From a virus, in IMG/VR virus record IMGVR_UViG_3300022226_000011, positions 1 to 42,567 of that record: a stretch of 42,567 nt of DNA. One strand, given 5' to 3'. This document shows positions 16,202 to 36,364 of this stretch, in pieces. Positions within the stretch are counted from its first letter, which is position 1, and every line of letters starts with the position of its first letter. The notes under the pieces were generated by a model. It saw only the letters and a list, made by a program, of their open reading frames with translations, did no database searches and had not been told where the DNA came from. A program made the translations under genes and the position numbers.

Positions 16202-16230
16202 GCCCAAATCGAATTTGAAAGGATGTGAAC

Positions 16231-17295
16231 ATGACACAGTTTATCGCGTTTCCAAAAATCAAGCAGTTCAAGGACGTCGTGCATAATGTTCGTCATAAGG
16301 CACGATTCCAGGGACTAAACGAAGAGACAGGCGAGCCGATTTATGATCATCTTGCTGCTCTTCCGAAGCTAGGGTTCCGAGGAACCGTCAAGCTTCACGG
16401 TACAAATGCTGCTGTTGTCCTCCATCCAAATGGAGAAATTGTAGCGCAGTCTCGAAAGAGAGTCTGTACCATTGAGAACGACAACGCTGGATTCGCAGTG
16501 TTCGTTCATGGAAGGATTGAAAAGTTCGAAAGGCTTTTCGCTGAGGTTTTCCTTTCTCTTGAGAGGAAGGGAGATAAAGTTGGAGACAATCCAGTTGCCA
16601 TTTATGGCGAGTGGTGCGGAAGCAACATCCAAGGCGGGGTCGGTCTAGCAGAACTTCCTTCGAAGAGATTTGTTGTCTTCGCTGTCCGAATTGGTGCAGA
16701 GGAAGATACCCGATGGGTGAACATGGAGGATTTCGATCGTCTGCCATCGGACCCGGATGCTGAGATTTACAACATTCTTGAATTCCCCGTGTGGGACAAG
16801 ATTGTAGATTTTGACCAGCCTGCTTTGGCTCGGAACGACATGGTGGACATTACTCTCGCTGTAGAGGAGGAATGTCCGGTTGCGAGAGCTTTTGGAGTAG
16901 AGAAGGGAACAGGAGAAGGTGTAGTTTGGCAGTGCGTTGAGCCAGGGTTTGAAGATTCAGGTTTCTGGTTCAAGGTTAAGGGAGAGAAACACAGTGTTTC
17001 TAAGGTGAAGACTCTGGCTCCGGTTGATCCGGAGAAGATGAAGAATGCTCAGGAGTTTGTTGATTCAACTGTCACTGAGAATCGTCTTGTTCAGGGAATT
17101 CAGACTCTTCAGGAAATGGGAGCAGAGCTTTCAATGAGGAGTACAGGTGTTTTCCTTAAGTGGGTGTTCGAGGACATTATGTCTGAGGAAAAAGATACCT
17201 TGACAGCTTCGTCTCTAGATGCTAAAACAGTTAGCAAGCCAATTTCCGAGAAAGCTCGAAAGTGGTTCTTTAAATATCTAGAGGAGAATCTATGA
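16231..17295 (+). CDS. RNA ligase, Rnl2-like
   Basis: A 354-aa ATP-dependent RNA ligase that joins 3'-OH to 5'-phosphate ends through an enzyme-AMP intermediate. Motif I KLHGTN is at 54-59 with K54 as the adenylylated lysine; motif IIIa IYGEWCG at 124-130; motif IV EGVVW at 229-233; motif V FKVKGE at 247-252. The last 100 residues would form the family-specific C-terminal domain. I choose the ATG at 16231, seven bases after GAAAGGA, over the GTG at 16225, which is too close. It is promoter-driven and lies directly before the tRNA/tmRNA array, which points to tRNA repair. Confidence 0.9.
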   Translation: MTQFIAFPKIKQFKDVVHNVRHKARFQGLNEETGEPIYDHLAALPKLGFRGTVKLHGTNAAVVLHPNGEIVAQSRKRVCTIENDNAGFAVFVHGRIEKFERLFAEVFLSLERKGDKVGDNPVAIYGEWCGSNIQGGVGLAELPSKRFVVFAVRIGAEEDTRWVNMEDFDRLPSDPDAEIYNILEFPVWDKIVDFDQPALARNDMVDITLAVEEECPVARAFGVEKGTGEGVVWQCVEPGFEDSGFWFKVKGEKHSVSKVKTLAPVDPEKMKNAQEFVDSTVTENRLVQGIQTLQEMGAELSMRSTGVFLKWVFEDIMSEEKDTLTASSLDAKTVSKPISEKARKWFFKYLEENL

Positions 17296-17584: not shown

Positions 17585-17975
17585 GGGGATGACCCGGTTT
17601 CGACAGGGCAAGGAGGACAATTCGCGCAAGGAAGCCAGCCAACGAATGCTTTGATCAGCGTTGGAAAATATAACTGCAAACGACAATGTCGAACAGTTCG
17701 CTCCTATTGCTCTAGCAGCGTAGAAAGCTGGGCGTCAACAGCCTGGGAACAGAAAGTTGGAAAACCGTTTGTTTTAGACCTCTGCTTAGATACGTTTATG
17801 CAAACAGCAGACTAGACACGACACTTTGAATGTCGACTGCTATATCAATTTATTGGCTTGCCAATATGATGTCTAACAACCAAAAGCTGTCAGTAGCTCA
17901 AACTGAATAACCTTGTAAGAATGTGAATTGTGTGATATGTTTTGGACGCGGGTTCGATTCCCGCCGTCTCCACCA
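17585..17975 (+). ncRNA. ssrA: tmRNA (transfer-messenger RNA), tag ANDNVEQFAPIALAA
   Basis: Acts with SmpB to rescue stalled ribosomes and tag the unfinished protein for proteolysis. The 5' end has the diagnostic GGGGATGACCCGGTTTCGAC; the 3' end has a T-arm with TTCGATT, the acceptor strand GTCTCC pairing with GGGGAT, and encoded CCA. The tag frame runs 17676-17723 from GCA to TAG and reads ANDNVEQFAPIALAA; the hydrophobic LAA end is the typical ClpXP/ClpAP degron. Length 391 nt, normal for one-piece tmRNA. tmRNA genes are uncommon in phages. A 7-bp hairpin (ATGGTTC/GAACCAT) separates it from tRNA-Thr. Confidence 0.93.
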
Positions 17976-18024
17976 GAGCGAAAGCCCGCCTACGTAGGCT
18001 TGACAGTCGGAGAGACGACACTTT

Positions 18025-18240: not shown

Positions 18241-19223
18241 ACCGAAAGGGAGAAAGAGAAATAATAGGAAATGGTTGTGAATGCGAATGGTGAGCAGATT
18301 CATTGTCAATGAATTGGGAGTGGGGTCAGTACCCATCACAATCGCCAACAGTTCTGTAAAGGAAAGCAGAACGAAGGAGAAGGGTCGCGACAGTTGCGAG
18401 TAAGGTGGATTAAGTTCTGAAGCCGAGAAAGCACTGCCTTCTTCAGGGACACATAACAACAGCCGCCACGAGGCGTGTCCTGGGTAACGCCAATGTTGTT
18501 GAAAACTGGTTATGGGCTAGTGGCGCAATTGGGAGCGCATCTGCTTTGCACGCAGGGGGTTGTGGGTTCGAGTCCCATCTGGTCCACCAGTGAAAAGGTA
18601 GATTCCTTCGGGTTTCTATTGAAGTAGTCGGCTGTGGAGTGCCGCAAGCCTCGAAAGAGGGTATACGTCTATCCCGAGTCCAGGGTGAAGGCGGGTTGAA
18701 AGACCAAATCTCCACACAACGGCAACTCAGTCCCTTAGCGGGGATAGCAACTGAGTGATTCCTTCGGGAGTCAGTCTCATTATGAGGCACACACCGTTGT
18801 AGTCCGTGCAGTTGGCGCTGCTAAGGAAGTTAGTGTGAATTGTGTCCCGCCAAGGCGCAATGATCGGCAAAGCTTGTGGTATTGTTCGTGGCTCGCAAGG
18901 TTACGGGCGAATACCCCTCAGATTACAAGTGTTAGGACAACCAACAATTTTGACTGTTGTAAGGTTAAGGTCTGAGAAAGTGTGATTCGTTGAGCTACAC
19001 CACGCGAGTGGGAGATCAGCAAACACTGGTCATGGATGAAGTGTCGTACAACACGAATTCCAAGAAGAATCACATGGATAAGAGGTTGCACAACCCTCAA
19101 CATAATTCCCTAGCAGGAAATGTGTGGTTAAAAGTTGCTAACTCTTTACACAGGAGTGGTTTCGTGGGCATTGGGTCCCTGATAGCAACACGATTCGGCT
19201 GGAGCCTTGCCGAGTTTCTTTAT
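18241..19223 (+). ncRNA. Large structured non-coding RNA region (ornate-RNA candidate)
   Basis: About 1 kb with no credible protein, driven by the promoter at 18206, with tRNA-Ala embedded at 18514. By hand I find helices 18273-18280/18336-18343 (8 bp), 18298-18304/18308-18314, 18351-18356/18367-18372, 18417-18422/18441-18446, 18633-18639/18710-18716, 18716-18722/18794-18800 enclosing three hairpins, 18917-18928 with 18957-18962 and 18971-18976, 18981-18988/19067-19074 (8 bp) and 19134-19140/19183-19189. Tetraloop hairpins: CCTC-GAAA-GAGG, GGTT-GAAA-GACC, CCAC-GCGA-GTGG and a cUUCGg loop at 18757-18772. GNRA/UUCG loops and nested long-range helices are typical of large ornate RNAs (GOLLD, ROOL) found next to phage tRNAs. 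Whether it is one of these or a new class cannot be told by eye. Confidence 0.6.
18514..18589 (+). tRNA. tRNA-Ala(UGC), copy 1
   Basis: Acceptor GGGCTAG/CTGGTCC, D-arm GCGC...GCGC, anticodon arm TCTGC-TTTGCAC-GCAGG (UGC), T-arm GTGGG-TTCGAGT-CCCAT, encoded ACCA. It lies inside the large structured RNA region. Confidence 0.9.
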
Positions 19224-19302
19224 GGGCTATGGGACTGCCTGGGGTGGTCACCTCGCTTGCACCGAGGATAGCAGCAGGGTTCGAGTCCCTGATGGTCCAC
19301 CA
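19224..19302 (+). tRNA. tRNA-Ala(UGC), copy 2
   Basis: Acceptor GGGCTAT/ATGGTCC, D-stem GAC/GTC with a long loop, anticodon arm CCTCG-CTTGCAC-CGAGG (UGC), T-arm with TTCGAGT, ACCA. Like copy 1 it is preceded by TTATGGGCTA; the two copies bracket the 3' part of the structured RNA. Confidence 0.9.
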
Positions 19303-19307
19303 AAGGT

Positions 19308-19456
19308 AGCGGCTGTGCCGCTCGTGTATCCCACGTAAAAGGTAGTCTTAATTCATGGGCGATATCCCATGGATGGCGATTGGACGCCGGATTTGATCCC
19401 TCATTCTAGACAGAGGAGGACAAGGCGTGACCTAGCCGTAAGGGAGAGTCCTTCGG
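19308..19456 (+). ncRNA. Hairpin-rich spacer between tRNA-Ala and tRNA-Val
   Basis: Hairpins AGCGGC-TGT-GCCGCT (19308-19322), CGTG/CACG, CATGGG/CCCATG (19354-19371), GGCG/CGCC and a UUCG hairpin just before tRNA-Val. A CCTTCGGG motif of the same kind occurs at 18604 and 18761. No reading frame. Probably part of the same structured precursor. Confidence 0.4.
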
Positions 19457-19461
19457 GATTT

Positions 19462-19538
19462 GGGATAGTAACTCAGTCAGGTAGAGTGTTACTGTGACAA
19501 GGTAGAAGCCACTGGTTCGAATCCAGTCTGTCCCACCA
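19462..19538 (+). tRNA. tRNA-Val(GAC)
   Basis: Acceptor GGGATAG/CTGTCCC, D-arm CTCAGTCAGGTAGAG, anticodon loop GTGACAA (GAC), T-arm ACTGG-TTCGAAT-CCAGT, encoded CCA. Confidence 0.9.
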
Positions 19539-19992: not shown

Positions 19993-20087
19993 TGCGGGGT
20001 AGAGAAGCGGTTGGGTGCTAAAACACCCTTAACTCATTGGGCTCATAACCCGAAGAACGGAAGGTTCGAATCCTCCTCCCGCTACCA
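19993..20087 (+). tRNA. Initiator tRNA-fMet(CAU) with a hairpin in the D-loop
   Basis: Initiator marks are present: unpaired T1-T72, GCGGGG/TCCCGC, and three G-C pairs GGG-CTCATAA-CCC. The D-stem GAG/CTC closes a 28-base loop that contains an extra hairpin GGGTG-CTAAAA-CACCC, so the gene is 95 nt instead of 77. T-arm GAAGG-TTCGAAT-CCTCC has one mismatch; ACCA is encoded. Confidence 0.85.
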
Positions 20088-24835: not shown

Positions 24836-24842
24836 TAGGTAT

Positions 24843-24922
24843 GCGCTTATATACCCTCTGGCTACGAACCAGTAGAAAGGTTAATTGGATACATGGGGGT
24901 TCGAGTCCCTTTGAGCGCGCCA
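24843..24922 (+). tRNA. tRNA-Arg(ACG) with rearranged arms
   Basis: Acceptor GCGCTTA/TGAGCGC, T-arm with TTCGAGT, GCCA. After the 5' acceptor only TATACCC(T) precedes the anticodon arm CTGG-CTACGAA-CCAG (ACG). The D-loop-like AGAAAGGTTAATT lies after it, followed by GGATA, which can pair with TATaCC. So the anticodon arm sits inside the D-stem. Same design as the two Arg tRNAs at 25598 and 25686. Confidence 0.6.
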
Positions 24923-25597: not shown

Positions 25598-25680
25598 GCG
25601 TCAGTAACCGAGGGGAGCTTCTAACTCCTTATCCGTAATCGGAGTTGCAAATGAGGGTTCGAATCCTTCCTGGCGCGCCA
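25598..25680 (+). tRNA. tRNA-Arg(UCU) with rearranged arms
   Basis: Acceptor GCGTCAG/CTGGCGC, then TAACCGAG, anticodon arm GGGAG-CTTCTAA-CTCCT (UCU), then 23 bases TATCC...GTAATCGGAGTTG..., T-arm GAGGG-TTCGAAT-CCTTC, GCCA. CCGA before the anticodon arm can pair with TCGG after it, so the D-stem brackets the anticodon arm. There is no D-arm in the usual place. Confidence 0.6.
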
Positions 25681-25685
25681 TTTAT

Positions 25686-25768
25686 GCGCACGTAACCGAG
25701 CCTGTCTTCGAAACAGGTAATCGTAATCGGAGTTGAAAATGGGAGTTCGAGTCTCTCGGTGCGCGCCA
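25686..25768 (+). tRNA. tRNA-Arg(UCG) with rearranged arms
   Basis: Acceptor GCGCACG/GGTGCGC (last pair G-G), TAACCGAG, perfect anticodon arm CCTGT-CTTCGAA-ACAGG (UCG), 23 bases containing GTAATCGGAGTTG, T-arm GGGAG-TTCGAGT-CTCTC, GCCA. Shares the TAACCGAG and GTAATCGGAGTTG blocks with the UCU gene although acceptor and anticodon stems differ, so the design is inherited, not accidental. Confidence 0.6.
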
Positions 25769-25771
25769 TTT

Positions 25772-25921: not shown

Positions 25922-26518
25922 ATGGATAAGATATATTTTACGTCCGATACGCATTTCGGGCATACAAACATTCTGAGGTTCGGCAAGGGTCGTCCCTTCG
26001 AAGATATTAACGAGCACGACGAGATGCTCATCAAAAACTGGAACGACAGGGTTGGACCAGGAGACAGGATTTACCACCTGGGGGATTTCTCGATGAGCAA
26101 CCCGGAAAGGATTCGCTCAATTCTTGAAAGACTGAATGGTCAGATTTTTATCATTCGTGGCAATCACGACAAAAATCTGAGGGGGGATAAAACCCTCAAC
26201 CATGTGATCTGGATTAAGGATTACTTCAAACTGAAGGTACCAGATGAGGGCACTGTGACGGGAAAGCAGGAAATCGTCCTGAGTCATTTTCCGTTCGAAG
26301 TGTGGGATAAGAGACATTATGGCTCTTGGCACCTACATGGACACTGTCACGGAAACCTGCCTAGCCCTGAGTGGCAGCCCAGGTTGGATGTGGGAGTTGA
26401 TAATTGCAACTTTGCACCCATTTCGTATGAAGAAGTGAAGAAGGTGATGAAGGCAAAGACATTTAAGCCTCTGGATCACCATTCAGACAAAAGGAAGGGA
26501 AAGAAAGATGTGTATTGA
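25922..26518 (+). CDS. Calcineurin-like metallophosphoesterase
   Basis: A 198-aa two-metal phosphoesterase. All five family motifs are visible in order: SDTHFGH (8-14), GDF, GNHD, LSHFPF and HGHCHG. No signal peptide. It overlaps the RtcB start by 11 bases, so the two are co-translated. Because RtcB needs defined RNA ends, a coupled phosphoesterase could open 2',3'-cyclic phosphates or trim ends; that partnership is inference. Single-domain phage enzymes of this type are common. Confidence 0.88.
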   Translation: MDKIYFTSDTHFGHTNILRFGKGRPFEDINEHDEMLIKNWNDRVGPGDRIYHLGDFSMSNPERIRSILERLNGQIFIIRGNHDKNLRGDKTLNHVIWIKDYFKLKVPDEGTVTGKQEIVLSHFPFEVWDKRHYGSWHLHGHCHGNLPSPEWQPRLDVGVDNCNFAPISYEEVKKVMKAKTFKPLDHHSDKRKGKKDVY

Positions 26519-27680
26519 TACTTTAAAAGGTAAGAACGTTGAGATTAAGTTGTGGTCGCCGGTTCATGATGTTGAATCGTCTGCTCTTGATCAGCTGAAG
26601 AACATTGCCGCCCTTCCGTGGGCGTTTCATCACGTCGCTGTAATGCCTGATGTACATTATGGCAAGGGTGCGACTGTTGGTTCGGTTATTGCAATGAAGG
26701 ACGCTGTTTCACCAGCTGCGGTTGGCGTTGATATCGGGTGTGGTATGGCTGCGGTCAAGACCAACCTGACTGCAAACGATCTTCCTGAAAACCTACGCAA
26801 GATTCGTCGAGAGATTGAAGCAAGCATTCCTGTTGGTTTCAACTCTCACGATGCTCCCGCACTTCTGAAGAGTCAGCGAACTGAGCTTTTTGTCAATGAA
26901 TTCTCGTCCCTTCACAAGGGAGTTCAGCGTTTGCAGGACAAGGCATTGAAGCAGGTTGGAACGCTTGGTGGAGGTAACCACTTTATTGAGTTGTGTCTCG
27001 ACACCGAGGGCAACGTATGGATGATGCTTCACTCTGGTTCGCGTAATATTGGGAAGTCTTTGGCAGACATTCACATCACCAAGGCAAAGGAGTTGGCTCA
27101 CAACCAGCACTTGCCAGACCGTGATTTGGCTGTCTTCTTGGCTGGAACTCCAGAAATGGAAGAATACAGGCGAGATTTGTATTGGGCACAGCGTTACGCG
27201 CTGCTGAACCGAAAGACAATGCTTCACATCTATCGTGGAATTATGAAGAAGTTCTTTCCACAGGTAACGTTCGAGGAAGCGATTCATTGTCACCACAATT
27301 ACGTTTCTGAGGAGACTCACTTTGGTGAGCACGTTTACGTAACTCGAAAGGGAGCAATCTCTGCCGGGGCTGGGACTCTGGGAATTATTCCGGGCTCCAT
27401 GGGAGCGAAGAGCTTTATTGTTGAGGGTCTTGGAAACCCAGAGTCATTTGAATCAGCGTCTCACGGTGCTGGACGAAAGATGTCTCGTGGAAAGGCGAAG
27501 AGAACATTCACTACGGATGATCTTGAGTCCCAAACTTCAGGAGTCGAGTGTCGAAAGGATCAGGCTGTTGTTGATGAGATTCCAGGTGCTTACAAAGACA
27601 TCGAACAAGTAATGGAGAATCAGAAGGATTTGGTCCGTGTCGTAGCGGAGATCAAGCAAGTTTTGTGCGTTAAAGGTTGA
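26508..27680 (+). CDS. rtcB: RNA-splicing ligase RtcB
   Basis: A 390-aa GTP- and Mn-dependent ligase that joins RNA 3'-phosphate (or 2',3'-cyclic phosphate) to 5'-OH ends, the ends left by anticodon nucleases and tRNA intron cleavage. Metal and catalytic residues are intact: DIGCGM with D75 and C78, GGGNHF with N157 and H158, HSGSRN with H175, HHNYV at 262-266, and ASHGAGR with H319, the residue that takes GMP. Length matches the family. It lies among the tRNA genes behind its own promoter, so tRNA repair or joining of rearranged tRNAs is the likely use. Confidence 0.95.
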   Translation: MCIDTLKGKNVEIKLWSPVHDVESSALDQLKNIAALPWAFHHVAVMPDVHYGKGATVGSVIAMKDAVSPAAVGVDIGCGMAAVKTNLTANDLPENLRKIRREIEASIPVGFNSHDAPALLKSQRTELFVNEFSSLHKGVQRLQDKALKQVGTLGGGNHFIELCLDTEGNVWMMLHSGSRNIGKSLADIHITKAKELAHNQHLPDRDLAVFLAGTPEMEEYRRDLYWAQRYALLNRKTMLHIYRGIMKKFFPQVTFEEAIHCHHNYVSEETHFGEHVYVTRKGAISAGAGTLGIIPGSMGAKSFIVEGLGNPESFESASHGAGRKMSRGKAKRTFTTDDLESQTSGVECRKDQAVVDEIPGAYKDIEQVMENQKDLVRVVAEIKQVLCVKG

Positions 27681-35616: not shown

Positions 35617-35660
35617 GGTTCACAATAAACAAATAAATAAAGAAAGAGTCATTCGTCTAA

Positions 35661-35737
35661 CTAGACGTAGGCTAGCGGAAAGAGTCACTCGTTTTGGAAA
35701 CGAGAGCACGTCGGTTCGATCCCGACCGTCTAGACCA
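35661..35737 (+). tRNA. tRNA-Pro(UGG), copy 1
   Basis: Acceptor CTAGACG/CGTCTAG, D-stem GGCT/AGTC, anticodon arm CTCGT-TTTGGAA-ACGAG (UGG), T-arm GTCGG-TTCGATC-CCGAC, ACCA. Confidence 0.92.
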
Positions 35738-35756
35738 CTAATTACGAATGACATAT

Positions 35757-35831
35757 CGGGGTGTGGCGCAGAGGCAGCGCGCTGGGTTTGGGACCTAGAG
35801 GTCGAGATTTCGAAATTCTCCACCCCGACCA
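35757..35831 (+). tRNA. tRNA-Pro(UGG), copy 2
   Basis: Acceptor CGGGGTG/CACCCCG, D-arm GCGC-AGAGGCA-GCGC, anticodon arm CTGGG-TTTGGGA-CCTAG (UGG), T-arm GAGAT-TTCGAAA-TTCTC, ACCA. G1... pairs normal; the T-stem has one mismatch. Confidence 0.9.
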
Positions 35832-35833
35832 TT

Positions 35834-35920
35834 ATGCTATGCGAGAGGCGCGGGTTCGAATCCCGTCAGGGCAACTGCTGCTCTGTAGTCTAGAAAAGGG
35901 ACAATGACGCTCGATAGTAT
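35834..35920 (+). tRNA. Circularly permuted tRNA-like gene (3' half before 5' half)
   Basis: Order seen: T-arm GCGGG-TTCGAAT-CCCGT (35850-35866), 3' acceptor strand CAGGGCA (35867-35873), linker ACTGC, 5' acceptor strand TGCTCTG (35879-35885), TA, D-stem GTC with a GG-containing loop and GAC. The two acceptor strands pair over all seven positions. The outer ends, where the anticodon arm belongs, form an 11-bp helix with one bulge (35834-35845 with 35910-35920). It fills exactly the gap between tRNA-Pro and tRNA-Leu. No anticodon loop or CCA is encoded; making a normal tRNA would need joining and recutting. Confidence 0.55.
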
Positions 35921-35922
35921 TT

Positions 35923-36009
35923 GCCCAGGTGGCGGAATTGGTAGACGCGCCGGATTTAGGCTCCGGTCCTCGAAAGAGGGTGTGGGTTCGAGTCCCACCT
36001 TGGGCACCA
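35923..36009 (+). tRNA. tRNA-Leu(UAG), class II
   Basis: Acceptor GCCCAGG/CTTGGGC, D-arm with GCG...CGC, anticodon arm CCGGA-TTTAGGC-TCCGG (UAG), variable arm CCTC-GAAA-GAGG, T-arm GTGGG-TTCGAGT-CCCAC, ACCA. Normal class II Leu, in contrast to the two short-arm Leu genes. Confidence 0.94.
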
Positions 36010-36015
36010 TTTTTT

Positions 36016-36126
36016 GTAAGGTGCATGGTGTTTCCCCGCGCGCAGGGACCTTGGGGTTCGATTCCCCACTAGTCTTCGGACTAGAAATGGAAAGGAATAA
36101 GTTAGGTTCGAGTCCTACGCCTTACA
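36016..36126 (+). tRNA. Composite tRNA-like locus with two T-arms
   Basis: Outer strands GTAAGGT (36016-36022) and GCCTTAC (36119-36125) pair as an acceptor, with T-arm TTAGG-TTCGAGT-CCTAC before the latter. Inside lies a second T-arm TGGGG-TTCGATT-CCCCA (36052-36068) directly followed by a hairpin CTAGTC-TTCG-GACTAG (36069-36084), like acceptor strands in permuted order. No normal anticodon arm is found and CCA is absent. It may be one tRNA inserted into another, or debris. Confidence 0.4.
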
Positions 36127-36133
36127 CTTATTT

Positions 36134-36222: not shown

Positions 36223-36364
36223 GAGACCGGAAGATGCAGGTTCGACTCCTGTCGCAGTTAAAGAGTGAAGTGCTGGCACATGGAACTCTACGCTTGAAAG
36301 AAATATGCCAGTATTTTGATTAATGCGTTCTGTGTAGCTCAATGGATAGAGCGCCGGTCAGTTT
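36223..36364 (+). tRNA. Second candidate permuted tRNA (split halves in reverse order)
   Basis: Upstream is a textbook 3' half: ACCGG (36226-36230), five-base variable AAGAT, T-arm GCAGG-TTCGACT-CCTGT, acceptor strand CGCAGTT (36253-36259). After 68 bases with hairpins (AGAGT/ACTCT, CTGGCA/TGCCAG) comes a textbook 5' half: TTCTGTG, TA, D-arm GCTC-AATGGATA-GAGC, G, CCGGT (36354-36358). CCGGTC pairs with GACCGG (6 bp) and five of seven acceptor positions pair. The 5' half runs directly into tRNA-Glu. Two independently decayed tRNAs are the alternative. Confidence 0.45.

What the first reader, a model, noticed from the sequence alone, without database searches (positions are those of the whole stretch)
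35834..35920. Circularly permuted tRNA-like gene in a phage
T-arm and 3' acceptor strand come before the 5' acceptor strand and D-arm. The two acceptor strands match at all seven positions across a 5-base linker, and the outer ends pair over 11 bp at the place of the anticodon arm. Permuted tRNA genes are known from some red and green algae and a few archaea; I know of none in phages. The locus fits exactly between two ordinary tRNAs.
Basis: partly seen in the sequence, partly recalled or inferred. Interest (0 to 1): 0.85.

Follow-up and report, generated by a model that had tools for sequence, protein, structure and literature searches.

The report
Phage Y-RNA-like tRNA mimic
The odd 'inside-out tRNA' between two phage tRNA genes is real, but it is most likely not a tRNA gene that gets re-ligated: it looks like a stripped-down relative of bacterial Y RNAs, which copy the shape of a tRNA without an anticodon or amino-acid end and are already known from other phages.

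Summary
Window 35834-35920 holds, in this order, a T-arm, a closed 7-bp 'acceptor' hairpin with a 5-nt loop, UA, a D-like arm, and an 11-bp helix (one bulged G) joining the ends. It fills the gap between tRNA-Pro and tRNA-Leu. A descriptor of the core found 4 cases in 3.4 Mb of tRNA-masked viral DNA and none in 16.7 Mb of Markov sequence.

The reading 'permuted tRNA gene, unknown in phages' is not supported. The same order defines YrlA, the bacterial Y RNA. YrlA's Rfam model hits exactly this interval, its best hit in the record, but weakly (20.3 bits, cut-off 69). Phages with a Ro60 gene (Grungle, Sparky, Cashline, GMA2) carry the module close to that gene. A model built mainly from such cases ranks this locus and a second one (36227-36358) as the window's top two hits. 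Syntenic copies in two related phages show compensatory changes.

The array-embedded copies lack a normal anticodon loop and, in the window family, the Ro60-binding motif. No Ro60 gene was found, but the records are fragments. Best reading: Ro-independent, YrlA-like tRNA mimics in the tRNA array of a phage that also encodes RtcB and an RNA ligase.

The parts
35834..35845 (+). 5' strand of the 11-bp basal helix (AUGCUAU, bulged G at 35841, CGAG)
   Evidence: MFE fold; pair list
35850..35866 (+). T-arm: GCGGG-UUCGAAU-CCCGU
   Evidence: sequence
35867..35873 (+). 3' acceptor strand CAGGGCA
   Evidence: 7/7 pairing with 35879-35885
35874..35878 (+). 5-nt loop ACUGC closing the acceptor hairpin (no CCA)
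   Evidence: sequence; fold
35879..35885 (+). 5' acceptor strand UGCUCUG, followed by UA (tRNA positions 8-9)
35888..35902 (+). D-like arm GUCU-AGAAAAG-GGAC (weak: no GG inside this loop)
   Evidence: fold; R1 alignment
35910..35920 (+). 3' strand of the basal helix (CUCG, AUAGUAU)
36223..36364 (+). Second module (W3), between tRNA-Leu and tRNA-Glu: basal CCGGUC/GACCGG, T-arm, partial acceptor CGCAG/CUGUG, ~67-nt linker with its own hairpin, Arg-like D-arm
   Evidence: best R1 hit of the window, 36227-36358, 38.2 bits; homologue L171:8155-8299 with 3 double changes in the module and 1 in the linker hairpin
36010..36133 (+). Third, partial module (W2): T-arm plus CUAGUC-UUCG-GACUAG hairpin inside an ordinary-order tRNA shell (GUAAGGU/GCCUUAC and a second T-arm)
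   Evidence: R1 hit 36043-36098, 17.7 bits; sequence
35757..35831 (+). tRNA-Pro(UGG) with CCA; its 3' processing would set the 5' end of the element
35923..36009 (+). tRNA-Leu(UAG); RNase P cleavage here would set the 3' end of the element
26508..27680 (+). RtcB RNA ligase
   Evidence: phrog_1075, E = 4.9e-142
16225..17295 (+). ATP-type RNA ligase
   Evidence: phrog_548, E = 1.1e-67; PF09414, E = 2.8e-13

Best explanation
The locus encodes a small structured RNA that mimics the elbow and acceptor half of a tRNA, as bacterial Y RNAs (YrlA) do: T-arm, closed acceptor hairpin, D-arm, then a helix that joins the two ends where an anticodon arm would be. It is a reduced, YrlA-like element without a recognisable Ro60-binding motif, and one of two clear and one partial copy inside this phage's tRNA array. 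Shown: the fold, its rarity, conservation of the architecture with compensatory changes in related phages, and its identity in arm order with phage Y RNAs lying close to Ro60 genes. Inferred: it is cut out of the tRNA transcript by processing of the flanking tRNAs (3' end of tRNA-Pro, RNase P at tRNA-Leu); the terminal helix and closed acceptor keep it uncharged and stable; and it acts as a tRNA-shaped decoy or tether for a tRNA-handling protein (PNPase, modification enzymes, RtcB/ligase, or a host tRNA nuclease) during infection.
For: YrlA's Rfam model (T-arm, closed acceptor, D-arm, basal stem) hits 35834-35923 over its full length, the record's best YrlA hit (20.3 bits, E = 0.0019). Phages with Ro-like genes carry the module near that gene (Rfam YrlA 36-43 bits): Grungle, Sparky, Cashline, GMA2, the last at a tRNA array next to tmRNA. 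L186 has it beside a TROVE gene, L197 beside a DUF2828 gene. Model R1, built from six modules of Ro60/DUF2828 genomes plus L178, has W3 (38.2 bits) and W1 (35.1 bits) as the window's top two hits. Syntenic pair G001a/G002a (gap after an Ile-like tRNA and before Phe, both with 5-nt loops): 8 double compensatory changes; W3/G001b: 3, plus 1 in the linker hairpin. Own strands pair far better than swapped ones among 19 modules (acceptor 6.42 vs 3.13 of 7; partly selected for pairing). RtcB lies in the same records; rsr-yrlBA-rtcBA operons are known (PMC7790460).
Against: The YrlA score is far below the gathering cut-off (69), and adjacent ordinary tRNAs can score higher with YrlA (28 bits, G001) or R1 (49 bits), so scores alone prove little. 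No CGGUUA/CAACAUG-like pair, seen here in four Ro-phage Y RNAs, flanks the window-family modules; GMA2 and L186 also miss that exact pattern. No TROVE or DUF2828 gene was found in the window-family records, though these are fragments. This exact locus has no homologue in the two relatives, and its D-arm is weak. No expression data.
Confidence: 0.7

Rival explanations
1. A true circularly permuted tRNA gene: the ends are trimmed by processing of the neighbouring tRNAs and ligated by the phage's RNA ligase or RtcB to build the anticodon loop; RNase P and 3' processing then remove the loop between the halves and CCA is added.
For: Order of halves and pairing acceptor; RtcB and an ATP-type RNA ligase are encoded; several copies sit 2-4 nt after the CCA or discriminator of a tRNA; one relative (L170:8205-8272) has ACCA in the loop and L127:5932-6026 has TCCA.
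Against: No U33 in most copies (by hand about 6 of 16, from sequences); in this locus an 11-bp helix with UU|UU ends replaces the anticodon loop; no CCA here; no bulge-helix-bulge; phages with Ro60 have the same module as a Y RNA.
Confidence: 0.13
2. Recombination debris: the 3' end of one tRNA gene next to the 5' end of another after deletions in a fast-changing tRNA array, no function.
For: The array is highly variable and contains many odd tRNA genes; this exact copy is absent from the two relatives; weak D-arm.
Against: 7/7 acceptor pairing plus an 11-bp basal helix; 0 cases in 16.7 Mb of control; syntenic relatives of sister copies keep the fold through 8 and 3 double changes.
Confidence: 0.12
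3. A processing signal: the tRNA-like module only recruits RNase P or other tRNA-maturation enzymes to separate neighbouring tRNAs in the long transcript.
For: Several copies lie exactly between tRNAs; T-arm plus acceptor resembles a minimal RNase P substrate (general knowledge).
Against: Most neighbouring tRNAs in the array have no such spacer; phages with Ro60 have it outside arrays; a basal helix and D-arm would not be needed.
Confidence: 0.05

Closest known systems
YrlA, bacterial Y RNA (Rfam RF02553; Salmonella structure PDB 6CU1, PMC8394870)
   Same: T-arm, closed acceptor hairpin, UA, D-arm in that order; ends joined by a basal helix; linked to rtcB in bacterial RNA-repair operons.
   Different: Much lower model score (20 vs cut-off 69); no recognisable Ro60-binding motif or Ro60 gene in the record; embedded in a tRNA array, with further copies; weak D-arm.
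Phage Y RNAs near Ro-like genes (Grungle, Sparky, Cashline, GMA2; L278-L281)
   Same: The same module in phages; GMA2's copy also lies at a tRNA array, after tmRNA.
   Different: Those are close to the Ro gene; four of five modules carry CGGUUA/CAACAUG-like flanks, which the window copies lack.
Circularly permuted tRNA genes of algae and archaea (PMC3978253)
   Same: 3' half before 5' half, short intervening sequence, ends paired near the anticodon.
   Different: Those have a bulge-helix-bulge at the junction, a real anticodon and proven maturation; none of this is seen here.
Permuted (two-piece) tmRNA (RF04321)
   Same: Permuted tRNA-like domain.
   Different: No tag reading frame or pseudoknots seen; the phage has an ordinary one-piece tmRNA at 17585-17975.

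Membership tests
YrlA / bacterial Y RNA (RF02553) | tRNA-like module in the order T-arm, closed acceptor hairpin, D-arm | tested here: met
YrlA / bacterial Y RNA (RF02553) | score at or above Rfam gathering threshold (69 bits) | tested here: not met
   20.3 bits; phage Y RNAs close to Ro genes also score only 36-43
YrlA / bacterial Y RNA (RF02553) | long basal stem formed by both ends | tested here: met
   11 bp with one bulge; other array copies have only 5-6 bp
YrlA / bacterial Y RNA (RF02553) | Ro60-binding sequence in the basal stem | tested here: not met
   no CGGUUA/CAACAUG-like pair within 90 nt; the motif was inferred here from four Ro-phage modules, and GMA2 and L186 also miss it, so the test is soft
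YrlA / bacterial Y RNA (RF02553) | Ro60/Rsr (TROVE) gene nearby | tested here: inconclusive
   none in the window or two relatives, but all are fragments
YrlA / bacterial Y RNA (RF02553) | bound by Ro60 and PNPase, modified by TruB/Dus | not testable with these tools
   needs biochemistry
Circularly permuted tRNA gene | 3' half before 5' half with pairing acceptor strands | tested here: met
Circularly permuted tRNA gene | bulge-helix-bulge at the termini | tested here: not met
   continuous helix with one bulged G
Circularly permuted tRNA gene | 7-nt anticodon loop with U33 after joining the ends | tested here: not met
   UU|UU at the end of an 11-bp helix; sequence
Circularly permuted tRNA gene | joined, CCA-tailed, aminoacylated product | not testable with these tools
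   needs RNA from infected cells
Ordinary tRNA | called by ARAGORN or Rfam tRNA model | tested here: not met

The most novel reading that the evidence does not exclude
The array-embedded copies are true permuted tRNA genes whose ends are created by processing of the neighbouring tRNAs and sealed by the phage's own RNA ligases, so that part of the phage tRNA set exists only after ligation. Evidence against a normal anticodon loop makes this unlikely but does not exclude it.
Probability: 0.1. Interest if true: 0.85.

Novelty: new variant of a known kind. Interest (0 to 1): 0.5.

Why it matters
Y RNAs are known mainly as Ro60 partners. A group of short YrlA-like modules that sit in phage tRNA arrays, lack the usual Ro60 flanks, and occur in phages carrying RtcB would extend that family and suggest that the tRNA mimic itself is the working part. 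It gives a testable idea: the mimics act in phage-host conflict over tRNAs, for example as the nuclease inhibitor that Wolin and colleagues proposed for YrlA (PMC7790460). It also warns that tRNA finders overlook these RNAs, and that they can be mistaken for permuted tRNA genes.

Tried and rejected
(1) DNA search for relatives of this exact locus: distant blastn in phages found only tRNA pieces; a degenerate pattern found nothing in viral contigs.

(2) Loose permuted-tRNA scans gave many false hits, in part from adjacent ordinary tRNAs; masking ARAGORN genes and adding controls solved this.

(3) A bulge-helix-bulge or a fixed 5+2 anticodon split fitted one locus (L092:8582-8655) but not the set.

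(4) Nested genes (another tRNA inserted in the anticodon loop): no matching upstream or downstream halves by eye.

(5) YrlA and R1 scores as proof: rejected, because adjacent tRNAs score as high or higher.

(6) Association with RtcB: 8 of 139 RtcB loci have hits against 0 of 62 PhoH loci, but only 8 of the PhoH loci have 5 or more tRNAs, and two of the RtcB hits (L132, L140) are doubtful; not treated as significant.

(7) The VWA_2 search for hidden Ro60 proteins was uninformative, as it missed even the known TROVE gene.

Full report
Observation. The interval lies in a 42,567-bp virus record with 35 ARAGORN tRNAs and a tmRNA, RtcB and PhoH, and an RNA ligase. Between tRNA-Pro (35757-35831) and tRNA-Leu (35923-36009) are 91 nt: basal strand, T-arm GCGGG-UUCGAAU-CCCGU, CAGGGCA, ACUGC, UGCUCUG, UA, D-like arm, basal strand. 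The acceptor strands pair 7/7 (one G-U) and the outer ends pair 11 bp around one bulged G. The minimum-energy fold is this structure, though 7 of 200 shuffles fold as well.

More than chance. A descriptor (T-arm 5/5, hairpin 7/7 with a 4-8 nt loop, T8[A/C]9, D-stem) matches four places in 3.38 Mb of tRNA-masked viral DNA (this one, L174, L178, L186) and none in 16.7 Mb of Markov sequence. The descriptor was written after seeing this locus, but the other three hits and the empty control do not depend on it.

It is not alone. In the same window, 36223-36364 is a second module and 36010-36133 a third, partial one. Two related phages, G001 and G002 (PhoH 72-75% identical), have modules too. L170:8205-8272 and L172:2345-2414 both lie in the gap that follows an Ile-like tRNA and precedes tRNA-Phe, and both have 5-nt loops. 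L171:8155-8299 lies between Leu and Glu exactly like window 36223-36364; L171:8379-8503 is a third case. G001a versus G002a show 8 double compensatory changes (4 basal, 2 T-stem, 2 acceptor). The Leu-Glu pair shows 3, plus 1 in the linker hairpin. More distant RtcB-encoding phages carry more modules: L092 five, L127 two, and L174, L178, L186, L197, L119, L147 one each. Across 19 modules own strands pair far better than swapped strands in all four helices; because many modules were found by pairing, the syntenic pairs are the stronger evidence.

What it is. Rfam identified the class: YrlA (RF02553), the bacterial Y RNA, matches L186 (41.4 bits), L197 (37.6), L127 (35.3 and 33.6) and L178 (26.4). 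In the window record its best hit is exactly 35834-35923 over the full model, but with only 20.3 bits (E = 0.0019). YrlA is a tRNA mimic with T, D and acceptor arms and a basal stem that tethers Ro60/Rsr (PMC8394870). It is often encoded with rtcBA (PMC7790460) and was already reported from mycobacteriophages (PMC12282133, citing Chen et al. 2014; the original paper is not held here). To test this I took four phages with Ro-like genes found by tblastn: Grungle, Sparky, Cashline and GMA2. All four carry the permuted module near the Ro gene, with YrlA scores of 36-43 bits. GMA2's lies after the tmRNA at the head of a tRNA array. L186 has the module beside a TROVE gene and L197 beside a DUF2828 gene.

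Independent model. R1 was built from L186, L197, GMA2, Cashline (2), Sparky and L178. In the window its two best hits are 36227-36358 (38.2 bits) and 35841-35908 (35.1 bits). The caution is serious: the T-arm of one ordinary tRNA followed by the D-arm of the next reaches 49 bits and also fools YrlA. The window modules are not ordinary tRNAs, but the scores alone would not prove the case; order, pairing and context do.

Why not a permuted tRNA gene. Known permuted genes have a bulge-helix-bulge at the termini and a real anticodon (PMC3978253). Here the place of the anticodon loop is an 11-bp helix with UU ends. Among the other modules U33 follows the basal strand in only about 6 of 16 (counted by hand). 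The loop contains no CCA here. The idea stays possible for some relatives (ACCA in L170, TCCA in L127), so I leave it 10-13%.

Limits. The window-family modules lack the CGGUUA/CAACAUG-like pair found in four Ro-phage modules (GMA2 and L186 also lack the exact pattern). No TROVE or DUF2828 gene was seen in their partial records. I therefore do not file this as a YrlA member; I say it works like one. This exact copy has no homologue in the relatives, and no expression data exist.

Mechanism proposed. Step 1 (inferred): release from the tRNA transcript by processing of the flanking tRNAs. Step 2 (structure predicted and supported by sister-locus covariation): folding into a tRNA-like body closed at the acceptor and paired at the ends. 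Step 3 (inferred): binding of a tRNA-handling protein, as tether or decoy; Wolin and colleagues suggested YrlA might inhibit an anticodon nuclease (PMC7790460). The RtcB and RNA ligase encoded in the same record fit an RNA-repair setting but are not shown to act on it.

Noticed in passing
window 24840-24922, 25598-25677, 25680-25771: Three Arg-like tRNA genes (ACG, UCU, UCG anticodons), none called by ARAGORN (one by Rfam), without a normal D-arm and with an extra UCCGUAAUCGGAGUUG-type segment between anticodon arm and T-arm.
   Followed up: no
window 19993-20087: A tRNA-Met(CAU)-like gene missed by ARAGORN, with a hairpin-like insert (GGUGCUAAAACACC) in the D-loop.
   Followed up: no
window 36010-36133: An ordinary-order tRNA shell (acceptor pair and T-arm) that contains a Y-like module with a UUCG-closed hairpin.
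   Followed up: partly
window 35645-35756: A 9-bp stem (GUCAUUCGU/ACGAAUGAC) encloses the whole tRNA-Pro gene 35661-35737.
   Followed up: no
L281:5422-5478 (Gordonia phage GMA2): A pistol ribozyme (56.8 bits) inside a phage tRNA array.
   Followed up: no
L178:6830-7200: Repeated elements of about 80 nt (UUACUUC ... GCUCACC) flank the permuted module on both sides; possible Y RNA family or unknown structured RNA.
   Followed up: partly
L197 minus strand, reverse-complement 19160-19475: Units framed by UUCAGCA ... GUUAA hairpins, one holding the Y-like module and one a D-armless tRNA-Cys(GCA), upstream of a DUF2828 gene.
   Followed up: no
L092:3810-3935: A further imperfect permuted candidate in an array that already has several.
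   Followed up: no
window 17976-18024; L170 near 7265, 8091, 8800, 9940: A recurring spacer motif GGCUUGACA...GGAGAGAC between tRNAs of the two related phages.
   Followed up: no
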